From positions 1,302,907-1,366,906 of the forward strand of contig NZ_JAGSYF010000002.1 of assembly GCF_025685645.1 (NCBI RefSeq): a DNA stretch of 64,000 nucleotides. Direction: 5' to 3'. Source of the DNA: Edaphobacter bradus (lineage in GTDB: Bacteria; Acidobacteriota; Terriglobia; Terriglobales; Acidobacteriaceae). Within the stretch, counting starts at the first letter, position 1. Every line of letters starts with the position of its first letter. The notes beneath the pieces were generated by a model, which was not told where the DNA came from, did no database searches, and saw only the letters and a program-made list of their open reading frames with translations. A program made the translations under genes and the position numbers. Positions 13,397 to 35,744 of this stretch are shown one piece after another.

Positions 13397-13557
13397 GCGT
13401 CATTGTCCATCCCTTCTGGGGGACGGTAAAGCCATGAAGTTAAAGGCCAAAGCCGACCTTCCCCCAGACTAGCCACGAGGTAACGCCCTGACGCCTGTGC
13501 GTCAAGTGATTTATTACCCCTACAAGAAGTAAATCAGCCAAAACCTCAGAAAAAATG
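13397..13557. other. Intergenic, no gene seen
   Basis: AT-richer leader of the hypothetical membrane gene. Contains a 7-bp inverted repeat tgattta/taaatca (13507-13513 and 13530-13536) and nothing else recognisable. The long intergenic repeat begins at 13558. Confidence 0.5.
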
Positions 13558-13820
13558 CTTGTCAAGCCCCAAAGCCATCTAAACCCATAAAAATAAACCA
13601 CTTCCAAGTGGCAGAGTAGTTCTCCTCAAGCCGCTAAAATAAAACCAGCACGTAAAGAAAGAAGCCCTGGCCAAGCCGGGGCTCTCTTTTCCGCCACTAA
13701 GTCATTTGAATTCAATATCTTGATCTATAACTTGTTTATTATGAATATCTTGCACGGGGAGTCCAAAGCTAAACCAAATAAAATGAATATTTTACGCAAA
13801 AACAGGGGGGAGGGGGGTAC
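13558..13820 (-). repeat. Long intergenic element, copy 3 (minus orientation)
   Basis: Reads on the minus strand in the same order as the copies at 33417 and 34992. A gtacccccc/ctcccccc tract (13820-13805) comes first. Three AT-rich boxes of the form gcAAgaTATTcATT follow (13795-13781, 13753-13739, 13723-13708), then a GC hairpin (13683-13663, agccccggc/gccagggct), actactctgccac, and finally ggctttggggcttgacaag. It starts 16 nt after the stop of the molybdopterin oxidoreductase gene and in the same orientation, so it would be that gene's 3' untranslated region and terminator. Confidence 0.75.
13663..13683. terminator. GC hairpin inside intergenic element copy 3
   Basis: Stem agccctggc (13663-13671) and gccggggct (13675-13683) with a 3-nt loop and one G-U-type pair. 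A T-run (ctctctttt) follows on the plus strand and an A/T-rich tract (complement of aaagaaag) on the minus strand. It probably terminates the molybdopterin oxidoreductase transcript. Confidence 0.6.
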
Positions 13821-13836: not shown

Positions 13837-15972
13837 CTACCCAGCCTTCCGGACCTCGACCAGCGTCGAGTAGAACGTAGGGCCGCCGCCGATATCGGCC
13901 AGCCGCTCGCTCGTCAGCGCATTCACATTTGCGCCATCGCGCGAGAGCTTGTTCCAGTCCAGCCGCGCCGCCACAACGCCCGCACCTACGCGGCCATCGA
14001 CAACCGCGCGCAGCAGAATGCGTCCGCGCCCGTTGAAGACCTCGACCTCGTCGCCCGTCGCAATACCGCGAGGAGCAGCGTCCGTCGCATGCATCTCGAG
14101 CACGCCCGCTGTACGCGACTCCATCTTCTGATGGACACCGAGGTTAGCGAAGGTCGAGTTCATATAGTTGTCCGCCTTGCGCGGCAGAAACTCCAGCGGA
14201 TACTCCTTCGCGTTCGCCCGCGACTCCGCCGGAGCCACAAACACCGGAACCGGAACCAGTTCGCCGCGCCCGCTCGGCGTGTGGAACCACGCAGCCGTGG
14301 AGAAGGGAAGCACTTCACCGGACTCGTTCGCCGGAAGCGGCAGCCGGACGTGACCTTCGCGCTCAAGCCGCTCGCGCGTGATGCCCGCAAACCAGGGGTC
14401 TTGCGAGCCGAGCGCCTGGTCAATCAGCTCGTCCTCGCGATCGTCGAAGCAAGCCTCAGAAAAGCCCATCCTGCGGCCCAGCTCGCCGAAGAGCGTGACG
14501 TTGTTTCGCGCCTCGCCCAGCGGAGCGATCGCCCGCTCGCTGACCTGCGCGTAGAGATGACCGTAAGCGCCCTGCACGTCCTTCGTCTCCAGGAACGTCG
14601 GAGCAGGCAGCAGAATGTCCGCGTAGTCCGCCGTGTCAGTAAAGAACTGCTCATGGACCACCATGAACAGATCGTCGCGCCGCATCCCGCGCAGCACATC
14701 GTTCTGGTTCGGAGCGATCGCCGCCGGATTCGAGTTGTAAACAAAGATCGCCTTCACCGGAGGCCCGCCAACGCCTGCGTCCGCCGAAGTCAGCGCCTCG
14801 CCCAGCCGGCTCATGTTCACCACGCGGGCCACGCGTCCCAGCGGACTCGCGTTCATCAGCTCGGGCATCTGCAGTGCTTTTGAGTTGAACGGAAACGAGC
14901 CCGACGTCGAGAGCTGCAATCCGCCGCCGCGATGCTGCCATGCGCCGGTCAGCAGCGGAAGCATCGCAACCGCGCGCGCGGCCGTCCCGCCGTTCTCGCT
15001 GCGCTGGATGCCATAGTTTAGCCGGATCGCCGCAGGCTTGCCGGTCGCGCGCAGGCAGTTGGCATAAGCAAGCGCCAGCCGTTCGATCGCTTCGGCTGCA
15101 ATGCCCGTCACGCGAGCAACTGCTTCAGGCGCGTGCTCAGGCTTCAGCGCATGCGCGCGCAGCTCCTCGAAGCCGTGCGTGCAACTTGCGATGTACTCGC
15201 GGTCCTCAAGACCGTCGCGCAGAATCACGTGCGTCAGCCCCAGCGCGAGCGCCGCGTCCGTTCCGGGATTGATCGCCAGGTGCTCATCGGCGAGCGCCGC
15301 CGTGCGCGTCTTGTACGGGTCGATCACGACCAGCTTCGCGCCGTGCCGCCGCGCCTCTTCGATGAAGGGCCACAGATGAATATTGTTGCCGTGAATGTTC
15401 GCGCCCCACGCGATGATCAACCCGGCGTGTGCAAAGTCTTCGGGCGGCGTTCCCAGCTTCACGCCGTAAACGCTCGACAGCGCCGTGCCTCCCGTGGTCG
15501 AGCAGATCGTCCGGTCGAGCTGCGAGGCTCCCAGCCGGTGAAAGAACCTGCGGTCCATCGATCCGTAGCCAAGCTGCCCGATGGTTCCGGCATAGCTGTA
15601 AGGAAGGATGCTCTCCGGACCATGTTCTGCTGCAATCGACGTCAACCGCGCAGCAATCTCATCAAGTGCCTCGTCCCACGAGATGCGCTCAAACGCTTCA
15701 GCCTCGCGGCCCTTTTCGAGCGGCCCCTTCGCAACACCCTTTTTGCGACGCATCGGATAGAGCAGTCTGTCGGGCGAGTAGACGCGATCCAGATATTTCG
15801 CAACCTTGCCGCACAGAAAGCCGCGCGTCACCGGATGCGAAGGATCGCCCTGCACCTTCACCGCGCGGCCGGTCAGTTCGTCCACAGTCACCAGAACGCC
15901 GCACGAGTCCGGGCAGTCATGCGAGCAGACCGCATGAACCACGCGCGTCGCGACAGTGGGATTCGTGCTCAT
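13837..15972 (-). CDS. Molybdopterin-dependent oxidoreductase (formate dehydrogenase/BisC-like)
   Basis: A 711-aa protein of the DMSO-reductase superfamily. The N-terminal Cys motif C-S-H-D-C-P-D-S-C-G with a later G-F-L-C-G-K would bind a [4Fe-4S] cluster. The molybdopterin domains follow (S-Y-A-G-T-I-G-Q-L, W-G-A-N-I-H-G-N-N, V-I-D-P-Y-K-T-R), and the C-terminal dinucleotide-binding domain is present (N-G-R-G-R-I-L-L-R-A-V-V). There is no Tat signal, so it is probably cytoplasmic. Substrate is not determinable; formate and various oxo-transfer substrates are options. It stands alone, and an intergenic element follows its stop. Confidence 0.88.
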   Translation of the reverse strand: MSTNPTVATRVVHAVCSHDCPDSCGVLVTVDELTGRAVKVQGDPSHPVTRGFLCGKVAKYLDRVYSPDRLLYPMRRKKGVAKGPLEKGREAEAFERISWDEALDEIAARLTSIAAEHGPESILPYSYAGTIGQLGYGSMDRRFFHRLGASQLDRTICSTTGGTALSSVYGVKLGTPPEDFAHAGLIIAWGANIHGNNIHLWPFIEEARRHGAKLVVIDPYKTRTAALADEHLAINPGTDAALALGLTHVILRDGLEDREYIASCTHGFEELRAHALKPEHAPEAVARVTGIAAEAIERLALAYANCLRATGKPAAIRLNYGIQRSENGGTAARAVAMLPLLTGAWQHRGGGLQLSTSGSFPFNSKALQMPELMNASPLGRVARVVNMSRLGEALTSADAGVGGPPVKAIFVYNSNPAAIAPNQNDVLRGMRRDDLFMVVHEQFFTDTADYADILLPAPTFLETKDVQGAYGHLYAQVSERAIAPLGEARNNVTLFGELGRRMGFSEACFDDREDELIDQALGSQDPWFAGITRERLEREGHVRLPLPANESGEVLPFSTAAWFHTPSGRGELVPVPVFVAPAESRANAKEYPLEFLPRKADNYMNSTFANLGVHQKMESRTAGVLEMHATDAAPRGIATGDEVEVFNGRGRILLRAVVDGRVGAGVVAARLDWNKLSRDGANVNALTSERLADIGGGPTFYSTLVEVRKAG

Positions 15973-32765: not shown

Positions 32766-33416
32766 ATGACGGGGTTTGGTCTCTTTAGGATTTTCGTGGC
32801 GGGTGCGGTTCTTGCCGGGGTTTCGGCTTCGGGACAGACGGCGAGTCATAAGCCGCGGAGTTCGACGACGACGACGACGAAGAACGTGGCGGTGTGGACT
32901 CCAGCGGTGCAGCAGGCGCTGGGAGTTGCGGCGAGCGACTTCAACGCTGTCGGGCTGAACCGGCTGACGAAGGCCCAACTGGATGCGCTGGTGAGTGCGG
33001 CGCAGGTCTCGAAAAAAGGTGTGTTGACGTGCTCGCCGGCAGGCACGGTGGTGGTGGGCAGGGTGCGGGTGCTGGTGACCGTTGCGGGCGACGATCCGAC
33101 CGGGCAGCGCGCAGTGGAGATTCGTCAGGCGGTGCATTCGCTGGCAGGCGTGGACCTGGTGGAGACGGCGGCGAGCGCCGACCGGGCGTTGCATGTGGTG
33201 ATCCAGGAGCAGACGCTGGGGAAGCGAACGATTGGTTTCACGGCGTCGTATATGACGTCGACTCCGTGCGTGGAGGATCTTGGGAGCACGAAGAAGGACG
33301 TCGAGCTGAAGGGCGAGCTTGGGACGTACACCGAGCCGAAGGGGTCTGACCTGGCGCGTGATCTGGCCGGGATGATGGACCAGGACTTGCAGCCGCTTCG
33401 GGGTGGAGCGCGATAG
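32766..33416 (+). CDS. Exported hypothetical protein
   Basis: A 216-aa protein from ATG 32766 with an upstream gggaaggga tract. The signal peptide spans residues 1-23 (V-S-A-S-G-Q). A Thr-rich spacer follows, then a mixed alpha/beta domain without recognised family. It includes L-T-K-A-Q-L-D-A-L-V and V-E-T-A-A-S-A-D-R-A-L-H-V-V-I-Q-E, which may be strand-helix units. Two Cys occur in the mature part. The stop codon is immediately followed by copy 1 of the long intergenic element. Confidence 0.7.
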   Translation: MTGFGLFRIFVAGAVLAGVSASGQTASHKPRSSTTTTTKNVAVWTPAVQQALGVAASDFNAVGLNRLTKAQLDALVSAAQVSKKGVLTCSPAGTVVVGRVRVLVTVAGDDPTGQRAVEIRQAVHSLAGVDLVETAASADRALHVVIQEQTLGKRTIGFTASYMTSTPCVEDLGSTKKDVELKGELGTYTEPKGSDLARDLAGMMDQDLQPLRGGAR

Positions 33417-33688
33417 GTACCCCCCTCCCGGCAATTTGTGCAAAATATTCATTCGATTTGGGTTAGGTTCGGACTTCGGGTTTGGCTGATCGTCAAAGTA
33501 TTGATTCTCCTGGGTTTTTGTTTGCGGTTCGCTCGCAAAGTCTTCATTCCAAAAGGAAAAAGCCCCGGTGTTGGCCGGGGCGTTCTGGTTTTGTGGCTAT
33601 GTTTCTATTGTATAGGATTGAGGGAACTACTCTGCCACTCGTATGTTGTTGATGGGGAACGGGTTGAGTGGTTTGGGGGCTTGACAGG
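33417..33688 (+). repeat. Long intergenic element, copy 1
   Basis: Begins directly after the TAG stop with gtacccccctccc. Three AT-rich boxes follow: gcaaaatattcattc (33440-33454), tcaaagtattgattc (33493-33507) and gcaaagtcttcattc (33535-33549). Then come a GC hairpin (33562-33581), ggaactactctgccactc and a terminal ggtttgggggcttgacagg (33670-33688). Copies 2 and 3 share this order and length (263-275 bp). It fills the whole space to the next convergent gene. Confidence 0.8.
33562..33590 (+). terminator. Hairpin within intergenic element copy 1
   Basis: Gccccgg (33562-33568) / ccggggc (33575-33581) with loop tgttgg, then gttctggtttt. It probably terminates the exported hypothetical gene. Confidence 0.7.
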
Positions 33689-33725
33689 GTTTTCTGTGGG
33701 ACACCCGAGTCATCCGACCTAAGGG

Positions 33726-34256
33726 TCAGTTGGCGGAGAGGCCCGGATTGTCCGCGCGTTTGACAAACAGCGCGTAGAACTCCTCCTCGCCCATCACGCG
33801 GCGAAGTTCCATGAAGGCGAAGAGAGGGATGAACGTGCTGAATATGATGATCGACCGGGCGATTAATTGGTCGGGGTTGAGATGGTGCCAGACAGTTCCG
33901 TAAGGCTCGCCGCGAATGACGCGTTTGACGAACTCCTCGACGAAGTGGAAGGCGAGGACCAGCAGGCTAAAGATGACTGCCTTGATGAGAACAGACTGAT
34001 ACACCGGTCTGGCTTCGGCATGCTTGGCAACGTTCACCATTTCTCCAACGCAGATGACTTTGCCGATGACGAGAGCATTGAAGATCCCGAAGGTGTAGTT
34101 CAGAGGGGTGACGTCATACTTACTCATCAGCAGGTTGGTGTAGGCCACGAGGGCACAGAAGAAAAAGGCCAGATACAAGGAAATGATGAGATAGTCCTTG
34201 AACTCCTGTACGGCTCTCTCCTTCAAACCAGGTGCTGCTGGATCTTTGGTGCTCAT
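33726..34256 (-). CDS. Hypothetical four-helix membrane protein
   Basis: A 176-aa protein with four clear transmembrane segments at about residues 22-44, 53-75, 88-110 and 132-152. Charged residues E and K/R lie at the membrane edges, including F-H-F-V-E-E-F-V-K-R. No catalytic motif is visible and the family is not recognised. A role in the inner membrane is likely. It is about 70 nt downstream of the PEBP gene on the same strand and may be co-transcribed with it. Confidence 0.75.
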   Translation of the reverse strand: MSTKDPAAPGLKERAVQEFKDYLIISLYLAFFFCALVAYTNLLMSKYDVTPLNYTFGIFNALVIGKVICVGEMVNVAKHAEARPVYQSVLIKAVIFSLLVLAFHFVEEFVKRVIRGEPYGTVWHHLNPDQLIARSIIIFSTFIPLFAFMELRRVMGEEEFYALFVKRADNPGLSAN

Positions 34257-34326
34257 TTTGAGGCCTCCTGTTCTTCGGTGGTTTCCGGGTTCGATTGGAT
34301 GGTGGGCCGCCCGTCCTTGCCCCGAA

Positions 34327-34908
34327 TCAGCGTTGGAAGCGGCCGGTGAGTTGGCCGCGTGCGAGGATGTGGCCGTTCATTGCGGCTATGACCTGCTTCT
34401 TCGATGCTCCTGCGGGGAGGTTCAGTTTGGTGTCGAGGGCGTAGAGATCGAAGACGTAACGGTGGGCGGAGGGGTCGGGTGGGCATGGTCCGTCGTAGCC
34501 GATCTCGCCGAAGTCGTTGACGCCCTGACGGGAGCCGTTGGGGAGTTGTTCCTTTTTCAGGATTGCCTGGGGGAGTTCGCGCGTGTCCGGGGGGAGGTCG
34601 TAGAGGACCCAGTGGGTGAAGTTTCCGATGGGGGCGTCGGGGTCGGTGACGATGAGGGCGAGGCTTTGGGTGCGGGCGGGCGGCGACTGCCAGGTGAGTA
34701 CGGGAGAGTCGTTTGCCTCGCCGCCGCAGGAAGAGTATTGGTTCGGGATGGTGTCGCCGGAGAAGCTGGCGCTTTTCAACTCGAAGGTAGGGAGTCCTTG
34801 CGGGATTTTGCCGCGGTTGCACGCGAGCTGGGTTGCGGTGAGGGCCCCGGTCAGGAGCAGACAGAGTCCGGCTTGGAATGAGAGATGTAAGGCGCTGCGC
34901 GATGTCAT
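34327..34908 (-). CDS. YbhB/YbcL-type PEBP-family lipoprotein
   Basis: A 193-aa protein with a signal peptide and lipobox-like T-Q-L-A-C30. The phosphatidylethanolamine-binding-protein fold is evident from D-P-D-A-P, T-H-W-V-L-Y-D-L-P-P, G-Y-D-G-P-C-P-P and H-R-Y-V-F-D-L-Y-A-L-D. These form the anion pocket of YbhB/YbcL (Raf-kinase-inhibitor-like) proteins. Function in bacteria is generally unresolved, and membrane anchoring is the less common form. It probably shares a transcript with the four-helix membrane protein. Confidence 0.9.
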   Translation of the reverse strand: MTSRSALHLSFQAGLCLLLTGALTATQLACNRGKIPQGLPTFELKSASFSGDTIPNQYSSCGGEANDSPVLTWQSPPARTQSLALIVTDPDAPIGNFTHWVLYDLPPDTRELPQAILKKEQLPNGSRQGVNDFGEIGYDGPCPPDPSAHRYVFDLYALDTKLNLPAGASKKQVIAAMNGHILARGQLTGRFQR

Positions 34909-34991
34909 ACCGGCACCTCTCGATGCGAGATGAAGGTATCTGATGTGAGGAGCTTGCGCAATTTGACGTGTCGTTTCAGGAGCGATGGAGA
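34909..34991. other. Leader of PEBP gene
   Basis: Contains the promoter space for the minus-strand PEBP gene. No clear boxes recognised. Copy 2 of the long intergenic element starts at 34992. Confidence 0.4.
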
Positions 34992-35266
34992 TACCCCCCC
35001 CTCCTACCTTAATGTGTGCAAAGTCTTCAATCGAAATGCTTTAGGTCCGGACTTCGTTTTTCCAGTTGATGCAAAGTATTGGTTTTGTTGAGTTTTTGAG
35101 GATGATGTGTGGCAAAGTATTCATTCCTAATGGGTAAAGCCCCGGCTTGGCCGGGGCTTTTGGTTTTTCTGGTCAACTGATTTAAGTATAGCGGATTTGG
35201 ATAACTGGTCTGCCACGGGGAAGTCGTTTGGTTTGATGGGGTTGGGTGGTTTGGGGGCTTGACAGG
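34992..35266 (+). repeat. Long intergenic element, copy 2
   Basis: Same order as copy 1: taccccccccctcc, boxes gcaaagtcttcaatc (35018-35032), gcaaagtattggttt (35071-35085) and gcaaagtattcattc (35112-35126), a perfect hairpin (35136-35160), ggtctgccac, and terminal ggtttgggggcttgacagg. Ttaggtccggacttcg is nearly identical to the corresponding stretch of copy 1. Unlike copies 1 and 3 it does not directly follow a same-strand gene. Confidence 0.8.
35136..35168 (+). terminator. Hairpin within intergenic element copy 2
   Basis: Perfect 10-bp stem aaagccccgg / ccggggcttt (35136-35145 / 35151-35160), loop cttgg, then tggttttt. A textbook intrinsic terminator although no same-strand gene lies just upstream. 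The minus strand would also read an A-run/hairpin/T-run after the cupin gene leader. Confidence 0.85.
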
Positions 35267-35285
35267 AATTTTTGGGGATTTTTTT

Positions 35286-35744
35286 TCACATTGAAGCGCG
35301 CGGTTGGCTTACTGCGGGGGTGAGGCCGTGGCGGCGCATGACTTCGCCGATGGCTGCGGGATTGGGTGGGGTTCCGGCTGCTGCGGCCGCTCGGGCGACG
35401 GCGGCGATCTCGCGGAAGTAGTCCGGGGACAGGATGCCGGGAGTGATGACGGCGAGTGTTTTGGAAGTGGTGGAGTGGAAGTTGTCGAAGCGGTGGACGA
35501 CTCCGCGGGGGATGCAGAGGACGTCTCCGGGGCCGAGCTCGGTGGGGCGGCCGTCGACGGTCATGGTGAGGACGCCTTCGAGTCCGTAGAGGGTCTCTTC
35601 GTAGGCGTCGTGGCTGTGGGCGATTGGGACCTTGGCTCCGGCGGGGACGTCGAGCTCAAACATCGCGATCGAGTTGTTGGAGGCGGGACCGTCGAGCAGG
35701 AATCGGACGACTAACTGGCCGAGACGGATCTCTTCTTTTGGCAT
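35286..35744 (-). CDS. Cupin-domain protein
   Basis: A 152-aa protein with one conserved cupin barrel. Motif 1 is H-S-H-D-A-Y-E-E-T-L-Y-G-L-E-G, motif 2 is G-D-V-L-C-I-P-R-G-V-V-H-R-F. The two His, the Glu and the later His would bind a metal. It lacks a signal peptide. A helical Ala-rich C-terminal tail (about 105-152) follows. Cupins range from isomerases and dioxygenases to sensory proteins, and the role is not determined. Confidence 0.85.
   Translation of the reverse strand: MPKEEIRLGQLVVRFLLDGPASNNSIAMFELDVPAGAKVPIAHSHDAYEETLYGLEGVLTMTVDGRPTELGPGDVLCIPRGVVHRFDNFHSTTSKTLAVITPGILSPDYFREIAAVARAAAAAGTPPNPAAIGEVMRRHGLTPAVSQPRASM

What the first reader, a model, noticed from the sequence alone, without database searches (positions are those of the whole stretch)
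33417..35266. A ~270-bp intergenic element present at least three times in this window
Copies at 33417-33688, 34992-35266 and 13558-13820 (inverted) share order, not just fragments. All have a leading TACCCCCC/CTCC tract, three gcAAa(a/g)TATTcATTc boxes, a GCCCCGG-CCGGGGC hairpin with T-tract, then CTGCCAC and ggcttgacagg. Length (263-275 bp) is constant while sequence drifts, as expected for a family of related elements. Copies 1 and 3 begin 0 and 16 nt after a stop codon, in the same orientation, so they form 3' untranslated regions that end in a terminator. No coding capacity is seen. This could be an RNA element, a miniature mobile element or a regulatory 3' UTR. Similar sequence blocks seem familiar in acidobacterial genomes, but that is memory and not checked.
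Basis: partly seen in the sequence, partly recalled or inferred. Interest (0 to 1): 0.85.

Follow-up and report, generated by a model that had tools for sequence, protein, structure and literature searches.

The report
Strand-locked intergenic repeat family
A stretch of about 270 letters of non-coding DNA is repeated roughly 85 times between the genes of this bacterium and recurs in its relatives; nearly all copies examined point the same way relative to the strand bias that chromosome copying leaves, whatever the direction of the neighbouring genes, and the reason is not known.

Summary
The three window copies belong to a family with 85 strong matches in this genome and matches in 48 of 52 genomes of the genus. 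In a phylum sample 27 of 396 genomes match, all in one family-level group. No Rfam family passes its cut-off.

The "3' UTR" reading fails as a rule: of 81 copies examined, the left gene is same-strand in 44, opposite in 37. Orientation follows strand composition instead: 77 of 81 own copies lie on the G-richer strand, the other four within 0.03 of zero; 57 of 59 in relatives. Nearby genes show no such bias.

A copy holds a C tract, three boxes, a covarying terminator-type hairpin, a -10-like hexamer facing back into it, and a GGGGCTTGACA box. Some positions are shared between species, yet copies group by genome (two genomes tested).

Best reading: old, replication-oriented interspersed elements, now intergenic terminator/promoter spacers kept alike by a shared, unidentified DNA-binding factor. 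Promoter activity, the factor and the spreading process are inferred.

The parts
33417..33699 (+). Element copy 1: starts directly after the stop codon of the gene at 32766-33416, before the convergent gene at 33726-34256
34992..35280 (+). Element copy 2: between two minus-strand genes (34327-34908, phosphatidylethanolamine-binding-protein family, and 35286-35744, cupin)
13546..13820 (-). Element copy 3: starts 16 nt after the stop of the molybdopterin oxidoreductase gene at 13837-15972
33420..33429 (+). Copy 1: C tract (left end)
33440..33467 (+). Copy 1: box 1 (GCAAAATATTCATTC...GGGTTAGG)
33492..33519 (+). Copy 1: box 2
33535..33556 (+). Copy 1: box 3
33558..33585 (+). Copy 1: GC-rich hairpin, A residues on the left, T-rich stretch on the right (terminator type)
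33607..33612 (-). Copy 1: -10-like hexamer TACAAT facing left
33625..33638 (-). Copy 1: species-specific site (AACTACTCTGCCAC; on the minus strand GTGGC-N5-AGTT) at the -35 distance
33675..33687 (+). Copy 1: GGGGCTTGACA box
35018..35045 (+). Copy 2: box 1
35071..35097 (+). Copy 2: box 2
35112..35134 (+). Copy 2: box 3
35136..35161 (+). Copy 2: hairpin AAAGCCCCGGC TTG GCCGGGGCTTT
35185..35190 (-). Copy 2: -10-like hexamer TATACT facing left
35203..35216 (-). Copy 2: -35-distance site (AACTGGTCTGCCAC)
35253..35266 (+). Copy 2: GGGGCTTGACA box
13769..13797 (-). Copy 3: box 1
13727..13753 (-). Copy 3: box 2 (degenerate)
13697..13723 (-). Copy 3: box 3 (degenerate)
13660..13686 (-). Copy 3: hairpin
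13635..13640 (+). Copy 3: -10-like hexamer TAAAAT facing back into the element (plus strand)
13608..13621 (+). Copy 3: -35-distance site (AACTACTCTGCCAC read on the minus strand)
13560..13570 (-). Copy 3: GGGGCTTGACA box

Best explanation
The copies belong to an old, vertically persisting family of interspersed intergenic elements. Shown: about 85 copies in this genome; a fixed modular order; orientation tied to the G-richer strand (normally the replicative leading strand) and not to genes; genome-specific motif versions; at least one loss by deletion. Inferred: the family spread in the past by a process that inserts in one orientation relative to the replication fork, for example into single-stranded lagging-strand template. 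It was then kept as an intergenic spacer: the hairpin ends transcription arriving from the left, and the -10 hexamer with the site 21-22 bp away forms a promoter firing back towards the left gene through the hairpin and the three boxes. A lineage-specific DNA-binding factor reading the boxes and the -35-distance site keeps the copies in a genome alike. Promoter activity, termination, the factor and the insertion process were not tested.
For: Copy number: 85 own matches at E<=2.4e-6. Orientation: flank GC skew on the element strand is positive in 77 of 81 own copies, lowest -0.023, with no relation to match score (rho -0.01); positive in 57 of 59 copies in relatives, a set that includes near-duplicate G208/G275 loci. 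Gene DNA at the own loci is 107 kb co-oriented, 103 kb opposed. In 20 regions of 20 kb the mean skew on the element strand stays positive out to 9 kb (0.07-0.17 per kb bin). On the dnaA contig 20 of 25 copies point away from dnaA (positions, dnaA); in G634 47 of 67 point from dnaA to the opposite point, p=0.0013. Constraint: hairpin stem, 31 double-changed paired cells against 9.6 in shuffles; a -10-type hexamer with GCC at 21 or 22 bp in 76 of 81 own copies, at 22 bp in 10 of 10 each of G208 and G275. Age: own copies at most 74% alike; G208 and G275 share 38 of 39 copies by score and order, paired by hand, with matching flanking proteins for 8 pairs fetched. Grouping by genome: the 10 G208 and the 10 G091 copies each form one clade among 101 sequences (support 0.85 and 0.97); for 2 of 3 own/G208 counterparts all other G208 copies are closer to the G208 one. 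Locus conservation: beside an mnmA-type gene 16 of 30 fetched genomes, own included, hold a copy, all 16 in the same orientation to the gene.
Against: No transposition event was seen; the one G208/G275 difference looked into is a deletion of the 3' half. No target duplication or terminal repeat was seen by eye; no formal search was made. A Y1/REP-type transposase is not the general partner: G033, G014 and G002 have at least 60 matches each and no Y1 match, while G012, G013, G295 and G665 have Y1 genes and no element match. Polarity against dnaA is weak in two genomes: G208 26 of 39, p=0.053; G155 27 of 44, p=0.17. In one search the 8 regions chosen as exceptions have skew near zero on the left side (-0.02 to 0.07), and one of three neighbouring opposite pairs (C1 223029-/232479+) shows no clear skew change. 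The -10 plus GCC pattern was found in only 18 of 29 other relatives' copies. The third counterpart (L009/L146) does not show the genome-wise pattern, and own copies did not form a separate clade there. No transcript data were available.
Confidence: 0.5

Rival explanations
1. A functional polar chromosome element: the copies are signposts read by a replication, segregation or nucleoid protein, and selection, not insertion mechanics, keeps them on the leading strand.
For: The strand lock is nearly complete, gene direction is irrelevant, motif versions are genome-specific, and copies persist at shared positions. At the mnmA-type locus the three genomes where the gene's third-position skew is near zero or reversed (G033, G010, G094) lack the element, against 16 of 27 that hold it (too few to be significant).
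Against: Match counts run from 0 (G012, G013, G295, G665) to at least 60 within one genus, so it is dispensable. Spacing is only slightly more even than random (CV 0.82-0.88 in three genomes). Known leading-strand signposts are 8-bp sequences (AIMS, PMC5993296, abstract seen).
Confidence: 0.25
2. A dispersed non-coding RNA gene: the leftward promoter makes a short RNA starting just before the hairpin, and the boxes are RNA-level binding sites.
For: A -10-type hexamer with tight spacing to a second site lies 21-26 nt from the hairpin in the three window copies. Many hairpins have A residues on the left, so they could also end leftward transcripts. In G012, without an element match, DNA upstream of the mnmA-type gene shows TATACT followed by a hairpin (by eye).
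Against: No conserved structure beyond the hairpin; no sigma-70 type -35 hexamer; about 85 genes for one small RNA would be odd.
Confidence: 0.12
3. An ordinary regulatory 3' UTR or terminator of the left-hand gene.
For: Where the left gene is co-oriented, the hairpin model starts 110-149 nt after its stop in 31 of 44 copies, so the roughly 130-nt left half then begins at or near the stop; the hairpin is of terminator type.
Against: 37 of 81 copies follow an opposite-strand gene, and a terminator has no reason to follow strand composition.
Confidence: 0.08

Closest known systems
REP sequences / BIMEs / REPINs with RAYT (TnpA_REP) transposases
   Same: Intergenic, high copy, species-specific versions, long persistence; Y1 enzymes act on single-stranded DNA, for IS608 and ISDra2 the lagging-strand template (PMC6006769, abstract and passages seen). 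Y1 transposases tied to REPs are reported from Acidobacteria (PMC3733652, abstract and passages seen).
   Different: REPs are 20-40 bp palindromes, mostly downstream of genes (PMC3733652). This unit is about 270 bp and asymmetric, shows no GTAG foot in the consensus, is indifferent to gene direction, and its presence does not follow Y1 genes.
BOX, ERIC and similar mosaic bacterial repeats (recalled)
   Same: Modular, about 100-300 bp, scattered between genes, imperfectly conserved.
   Different: Orientation tied to strand composition, genome-specific motif versions at positions shared between species; from memory these are not known features of BOX or ERIC.
AIMS / KOPS-type leading-strand sequences
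   Same: Strand bias relative to replication.
   Different: AIMS are 8-bp sequences whose abundance and strand bias rise towards the terminus (PMC5993296, abstract seen); here there are about 85 long modules, and a rise towards the terminus was not tested.

Membership tests
REP/BIME with RAYT | 20-40 bp palindromic unit with a GTAG or CGTC foot | tested here: not met
   Unit is about 270 bp; the consensus of 49 copies shows no such foot at the hairpin (by eye)
REP/BIME with RAYT | Associated Y1 transposase gene | tested here: inconclusive
   Element within about 1.5 kb of 4 of 24 and, at E<1e-5, 4 of 25 Y1 loci; two of the first four (L186, L191) are the same mnmA-side locus; no matched control; presence of Y1 does not follow presence of elements
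MITE | Terminal inverted repeats and target duplication | tested here: inconclusive
   None seen by eye, left end C-rich, right end GTGGAAA type; no empty site found, only a deletion
MITE | Recent near-identical copies | tested here: inconclusive
   Own genome: not met, maximum 74% among 81 copies. G091: 10 copies 63-86% identical with flanks, so younger there
Intrinsic terminator | GC-rich hairpin followed by a T-rich tract, stem kept by compensatory change | tested here: met
   mean fold energy of the hairpin stretch -23.5 kcal/mol, range -40.0 to -7.3, in 81 copies. Termination itself not tested
Sigma-70 promoter | -10 TANAAT/TATACT-type hexamer | tested here: met
   77 of 81 own copies, 10 of 10 in each of G208, G275 and G091, 18 of 29 in other relatives, with a fixed list of allowed hexamers
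Sigma-70 promoter | -35 TTGACA-type hexamer at about 17 bp | tested here: not met
   That position holds genome-specific sequence inside TGGC-N5-AGTT (by eye)
Riboswitch or cis-regulatory RNA | Conserved structure beyond a terminator and fixed orientation to the regulated gene | tested here: not met
Any Rfam family | Match above the curated score | tested here: not met
   0 matches in the window at gathering scores; in 33300-35400 the best sub-threshold match has E 0.054, 27.5 against 55 bits
Replication-polar sequences (AIMS, KOPS) | Preferential location on the leading strand | tested here: met
   the leading strand being inferred from GC skew and dnaA; two of three genomes not significant
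Replication-polar sequences (AIMS, KOPS) | Short sequence of about 8 bp | tested here: not met
   Module of about 270 bp
Replication-polar sequences (AIMS, KOPS) | Strand bias rising towards the terminus | not tested
   No call made for it

The most novel reading that the evidence does not exclude
A new kind of chromosome signpost: a long, multi-part DNA module placed between genes on the leading strand only, combining a transcription terminator with a promoter that fires against the replication fork, and read genome-wide by a lineage-specific protein with which all copies co-evolve.
Probability: 0.2. Interest if true: 0.88.

Novelty: new variant of a known kind. Interest (0 to 1): 0.62.

Why it matters
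Bacterial interspersed repeats are usually described by their relation to genes. A family that ignores gene direction but follows strand composition in nearly every copy examined, and whose motif versions are genome-wide, is a natural experiment on how replication polarity shapes non-coding DNA. If selection is behind it, it points to an unknown polar chromosome function. If insertion mechanics are behind it, it is an unusually clean fossil record of fork-coupled insertion and of later inversions, since a copy and the local skew would turn together.

Tried and rejected
Alternative pairing between the hairpin's 5' arm (AAGCCCC) and the 3' GGGGCTT box, suggested by RNAalifold: rejected, because copies with a different stem (L034, L035, L037) keep GGGGCTT unchanged. 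A forward promoter at TTGACA: rejected by eye, no -10 at the right distance in the tails. A fixed relation to gene direction: rejected. RAYT as the general partner: not supported. Mobility shown by an empty site: the only candidate looked into was a deletion. Detection bias as cause of the strand lock: no relation between match score and skew. Pattern scan of named genomes: six hits in unrelated groups, taken as chance and not examined; near relatives may be left out of that collection, so it says nothing on them. Plasmid collection: no match for two element queries. Literature searches in which I saw no earlier description: (listings; passages of PMC6006769 and PMC3733652; abstract of PMC5993296). 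The organism's name was not determined.

Rows dropped before counts: of 85 own matches with E<=2.4e-6 the four weakest (43.5-49.3 bits) were not taken into. BLAST places of a 5' half with another 3' half (such as L029, L030) were not counted as copies. The strand of relatives' copies and later was set by a script. Multi-genome searches scored only a capped number of candidates per genome (7, 12, 50 or 60), so their counts are lower bounds. G208 counts use model R1 (39 matches); model R2 found 54. In one search, 67 of the 68 G634 matches were used (one partial match left out), with rounded genome sizes and the point opposite dnaA as terminus. G208 and G091 sets are the best-scoring ten of each. 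In one search I chose the regions, 8 as exceptions and 12 as regular. Of 47 genomes with the mnmA-type gene, the 30 with fetched loci were examined; two of these also have element matches elsewhere in the locus (L272 partial, L276). The gene finder is my own script trained on the window.

Full report
Observation. A BLAST search with copy 2 found 43 places in the genome, itself included. A profile of the hairpin and 3' half from 29 copies (essentially a sequence model) found 88 matches at E<=0.1, 85 of them at E<=2.4e-6. Rfam gives nothing above cut-off in the window; the best sub-threshold match in 33300-35400 reaches half of its cut-off.

Anatomy, read left to right (consensus of 81 copies). 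A C tract (in many copies GGGGTACCCCCTCCCC); box 1 (GTGCAAAATATTCATT...GGTTTAGG), a GGACTT block, box 2 (GTAAAATATTCCATCTAAAGGGGTTA) and box 3 (TCAAAGTATTCAAAATAAATGGGTTA). Then a GC-rich hairpin with A residues on its left and T residues on its right; CTATTTTAGCG; AACTACTCTGCCAC; TTTGTTTTG; and TTTGGGGGCTTGACAGG with a tail. On 49 copies, 39 from relatives and 10 from this genome, the hairpin stem covaries: 31 cells changed on both sides and still paired against 9.6 in shuffles, 8 of 10 pairs with such a change. On the other strand CTATTTTAG reads as a -10 hexamer with a free third position: TAAAAT 48, TACAAT 11, TAGAAT 8, TATAAT 5, TAAACT 3, TATACT 2, in 77 of 81 copies, with GCC at 21 or 22 bp in 76. 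The same pattern is in 10 of 10 copies each of G208, G275 and G091 but in only 18 of 29 copies from other relatives. No sigma-70 -35 hexamer is seen; that position lies inside TGGC-N5-AGTT. Variants exist: a longer 3' half, a second tail type, and copies with a GTTGTTAGTTG tract before the hairpin.

Gene context. With my own gene finder, 78 of 81 copies overlap no predicted gene and the three overlapping frames score low (8-17). The left neighbour is on the same strand in 44 and on the opposite strand in 37; neighbour pairs are convergent 24, both opposite 21, both same 18, divergent 16, and 2 lack a right neighbour in the fetched DNA. When the left gene is co-oriented, the hairpin model starts 110-149 nt after its stop in 31 of 44, so the left half then begins at or near the stop codon. 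The element is therefore not a 3' UTR as a rule.

Strand lock. GC skew of the flanking DNA (element excluded), read on the element strand, is positive in 77 of 81 copies, mean 0.129; the four others lie between -0.023 and 0. Skew is unrelated to match score, so detection bias is unlikely. Genes near the copies are split 107 kb to 103 kb, and third-position skew is positive on the element strand for genes of either direction (0.17 and 0.42). In relatives 57 of 59 copies are positive, a set that includes near-identical loci of G208 and G275. In twenty 20-kb regions the mean stays positive out to 9 kb. In the 8 regions chosen because the copy runs against its neighbours the left side averages about zero and the right side is positive. 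Two of three neighbouring pairs of opposite orientation (C3 358979-/365437+ and C2 1080570-/1087796+) sit in stretches of opposite skew; the third (C1 223029-/232479+) shows no clear change. In the window, copy 3 lies in a negative stretch and copies 1 and 2 in a positive one. dnaA lies at 854 kb of contig C2; on that contig 20 of 25 copies point away from it. In three relatives the share pointing from dnaA to the opposite point is 47 of 67 (p=0.0013), 26 of 39 (p=0.053) and 27 of 44 (p=0.17). The weaker fit to dnaA than to local skew is what inversions carrying both copy and skew would give; that is an inference.

Age and grouping by genome. Own copies are at most 74% identical, median 55% with flanks. 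G208 and G275 share 38 of 39 copies by score and order, paired by hand; 8 fetched pairs have matching flanking proteins; the odd one has lost its 3' half in G275. Several copies sit beside the same gene, on the same side and in the same orientation, in different species, but some counterparts have another arrangement (L017 against L159, L013 against L161). Beside a tRNA-methyltransferase-family gene (mnmA type), 16 of 30 fetched genomes, own included, hold a copy, all in the same orientation to the gene; of the others some keep parts of it and some none (by eye). Yet copies group by genome: the 10 G208 copies form one clade and the 10 G091 copies another among 101 sequences, while the 81 own copies do not form a separate clade. 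Two of three own/G208 counterparts are no closer than unrelated pairs; the third is. Motif versions differ: CTCTGCC in 47 of 77 own copies, ATACGCC in 8 of 10 G208 copies, ACCTGCC or CCATGCC in 8 of 10 G091 copies. The box core is mostly TATTC, TATTG or TCTTC in the window's genome, TCGTC in 18 of 24 boxes counted in G091, and mostly ACGT/ATGT types in G208. G091 copies are younger, 76-86% identical except L148, and continue into other repeats.

Distribution. R1: 33 of 61 genomes, own included, all in the genus, 0 of 24 outside the family; 41 of 250 genomes of the family, in 12 of 79 genera. So in these searches the family is lineage-specific, and it is dispensable.

Mechanism. What is shown is the anatomy, the strand lock, the indifference to genes, persistence and genome-specific motif versions. 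The best single account is an old replication-oriented interspersed family, retained as intergenic terminator/promoter modules and kept alike by a shared factor. Fork-coupled insertion has precedent in IS608 and ISDra2, which use the lagging-strand template (PMC6006769, abstract and passages seen). Against a REP/RAYT identity stand the size and asymmetry of the unit and the lack of a match between Y1 genes and element counts. Y1 loci do lie near elements more often than my rough estimate from element density (4 of 24 and 4 of 25), but two of these are one locus and no matched control was run. Selection for polarity is the main rival and would be the more interesting answer.

Limits. No transcript or binding data. 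Terminal repeats and target duplications were judged by eye only. No other class of intergenic sequence was run as a control for the strand lock; the control used is gene orientation.

Noticed in passing
window 0-30000 against 32000-64000: GC skew changes sign near 31-32 kb for genes on both strands, which looks like the edge of an inverted or rearranged block.
   Followed up: partly
L249-L278, upstream of the mnmA-type gene: A second -10-like sequence (TGMGAAAATAG) lies close before the start codon in many relatives, with or without the element, so the gene may have its own promoter; G012, G002 and G658 show a TATACT hexamer plus hairpin without a full element (by eye).
   Followed up: partly
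L186 (G208), L191 (G032), L196 (G091), L187 (G634); L235, L238, L243, L245: Y1/REP-type transposase genes with an element within about 1.5 kb; L186 and L191 are the same locus.
   Followed up: partly
G091 loci L150, L152, L155, L158, L161, L164, L167, L170, L173: After the element come further shared repeats (GGCACGGCTGAAGCCGTGCC hairpin; in several GGATCGCTCCTTTGGAGCGA and CGTTCAGGATGACGGTC), a mosaic of intergenic repeats.
   Followed up: no
L007, L012, L017, L025, L131: Copies with a GGTTGTTAGTTGCTGGTTGTTAGTTG-type tract before the hairpin.
   Followed up: no
L029, L030: Elements with a similar 5' half but another 3' half ending in GTCAAGG...TGTGGAAA, a possible second subfamily not counted here.
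   Followed up: no
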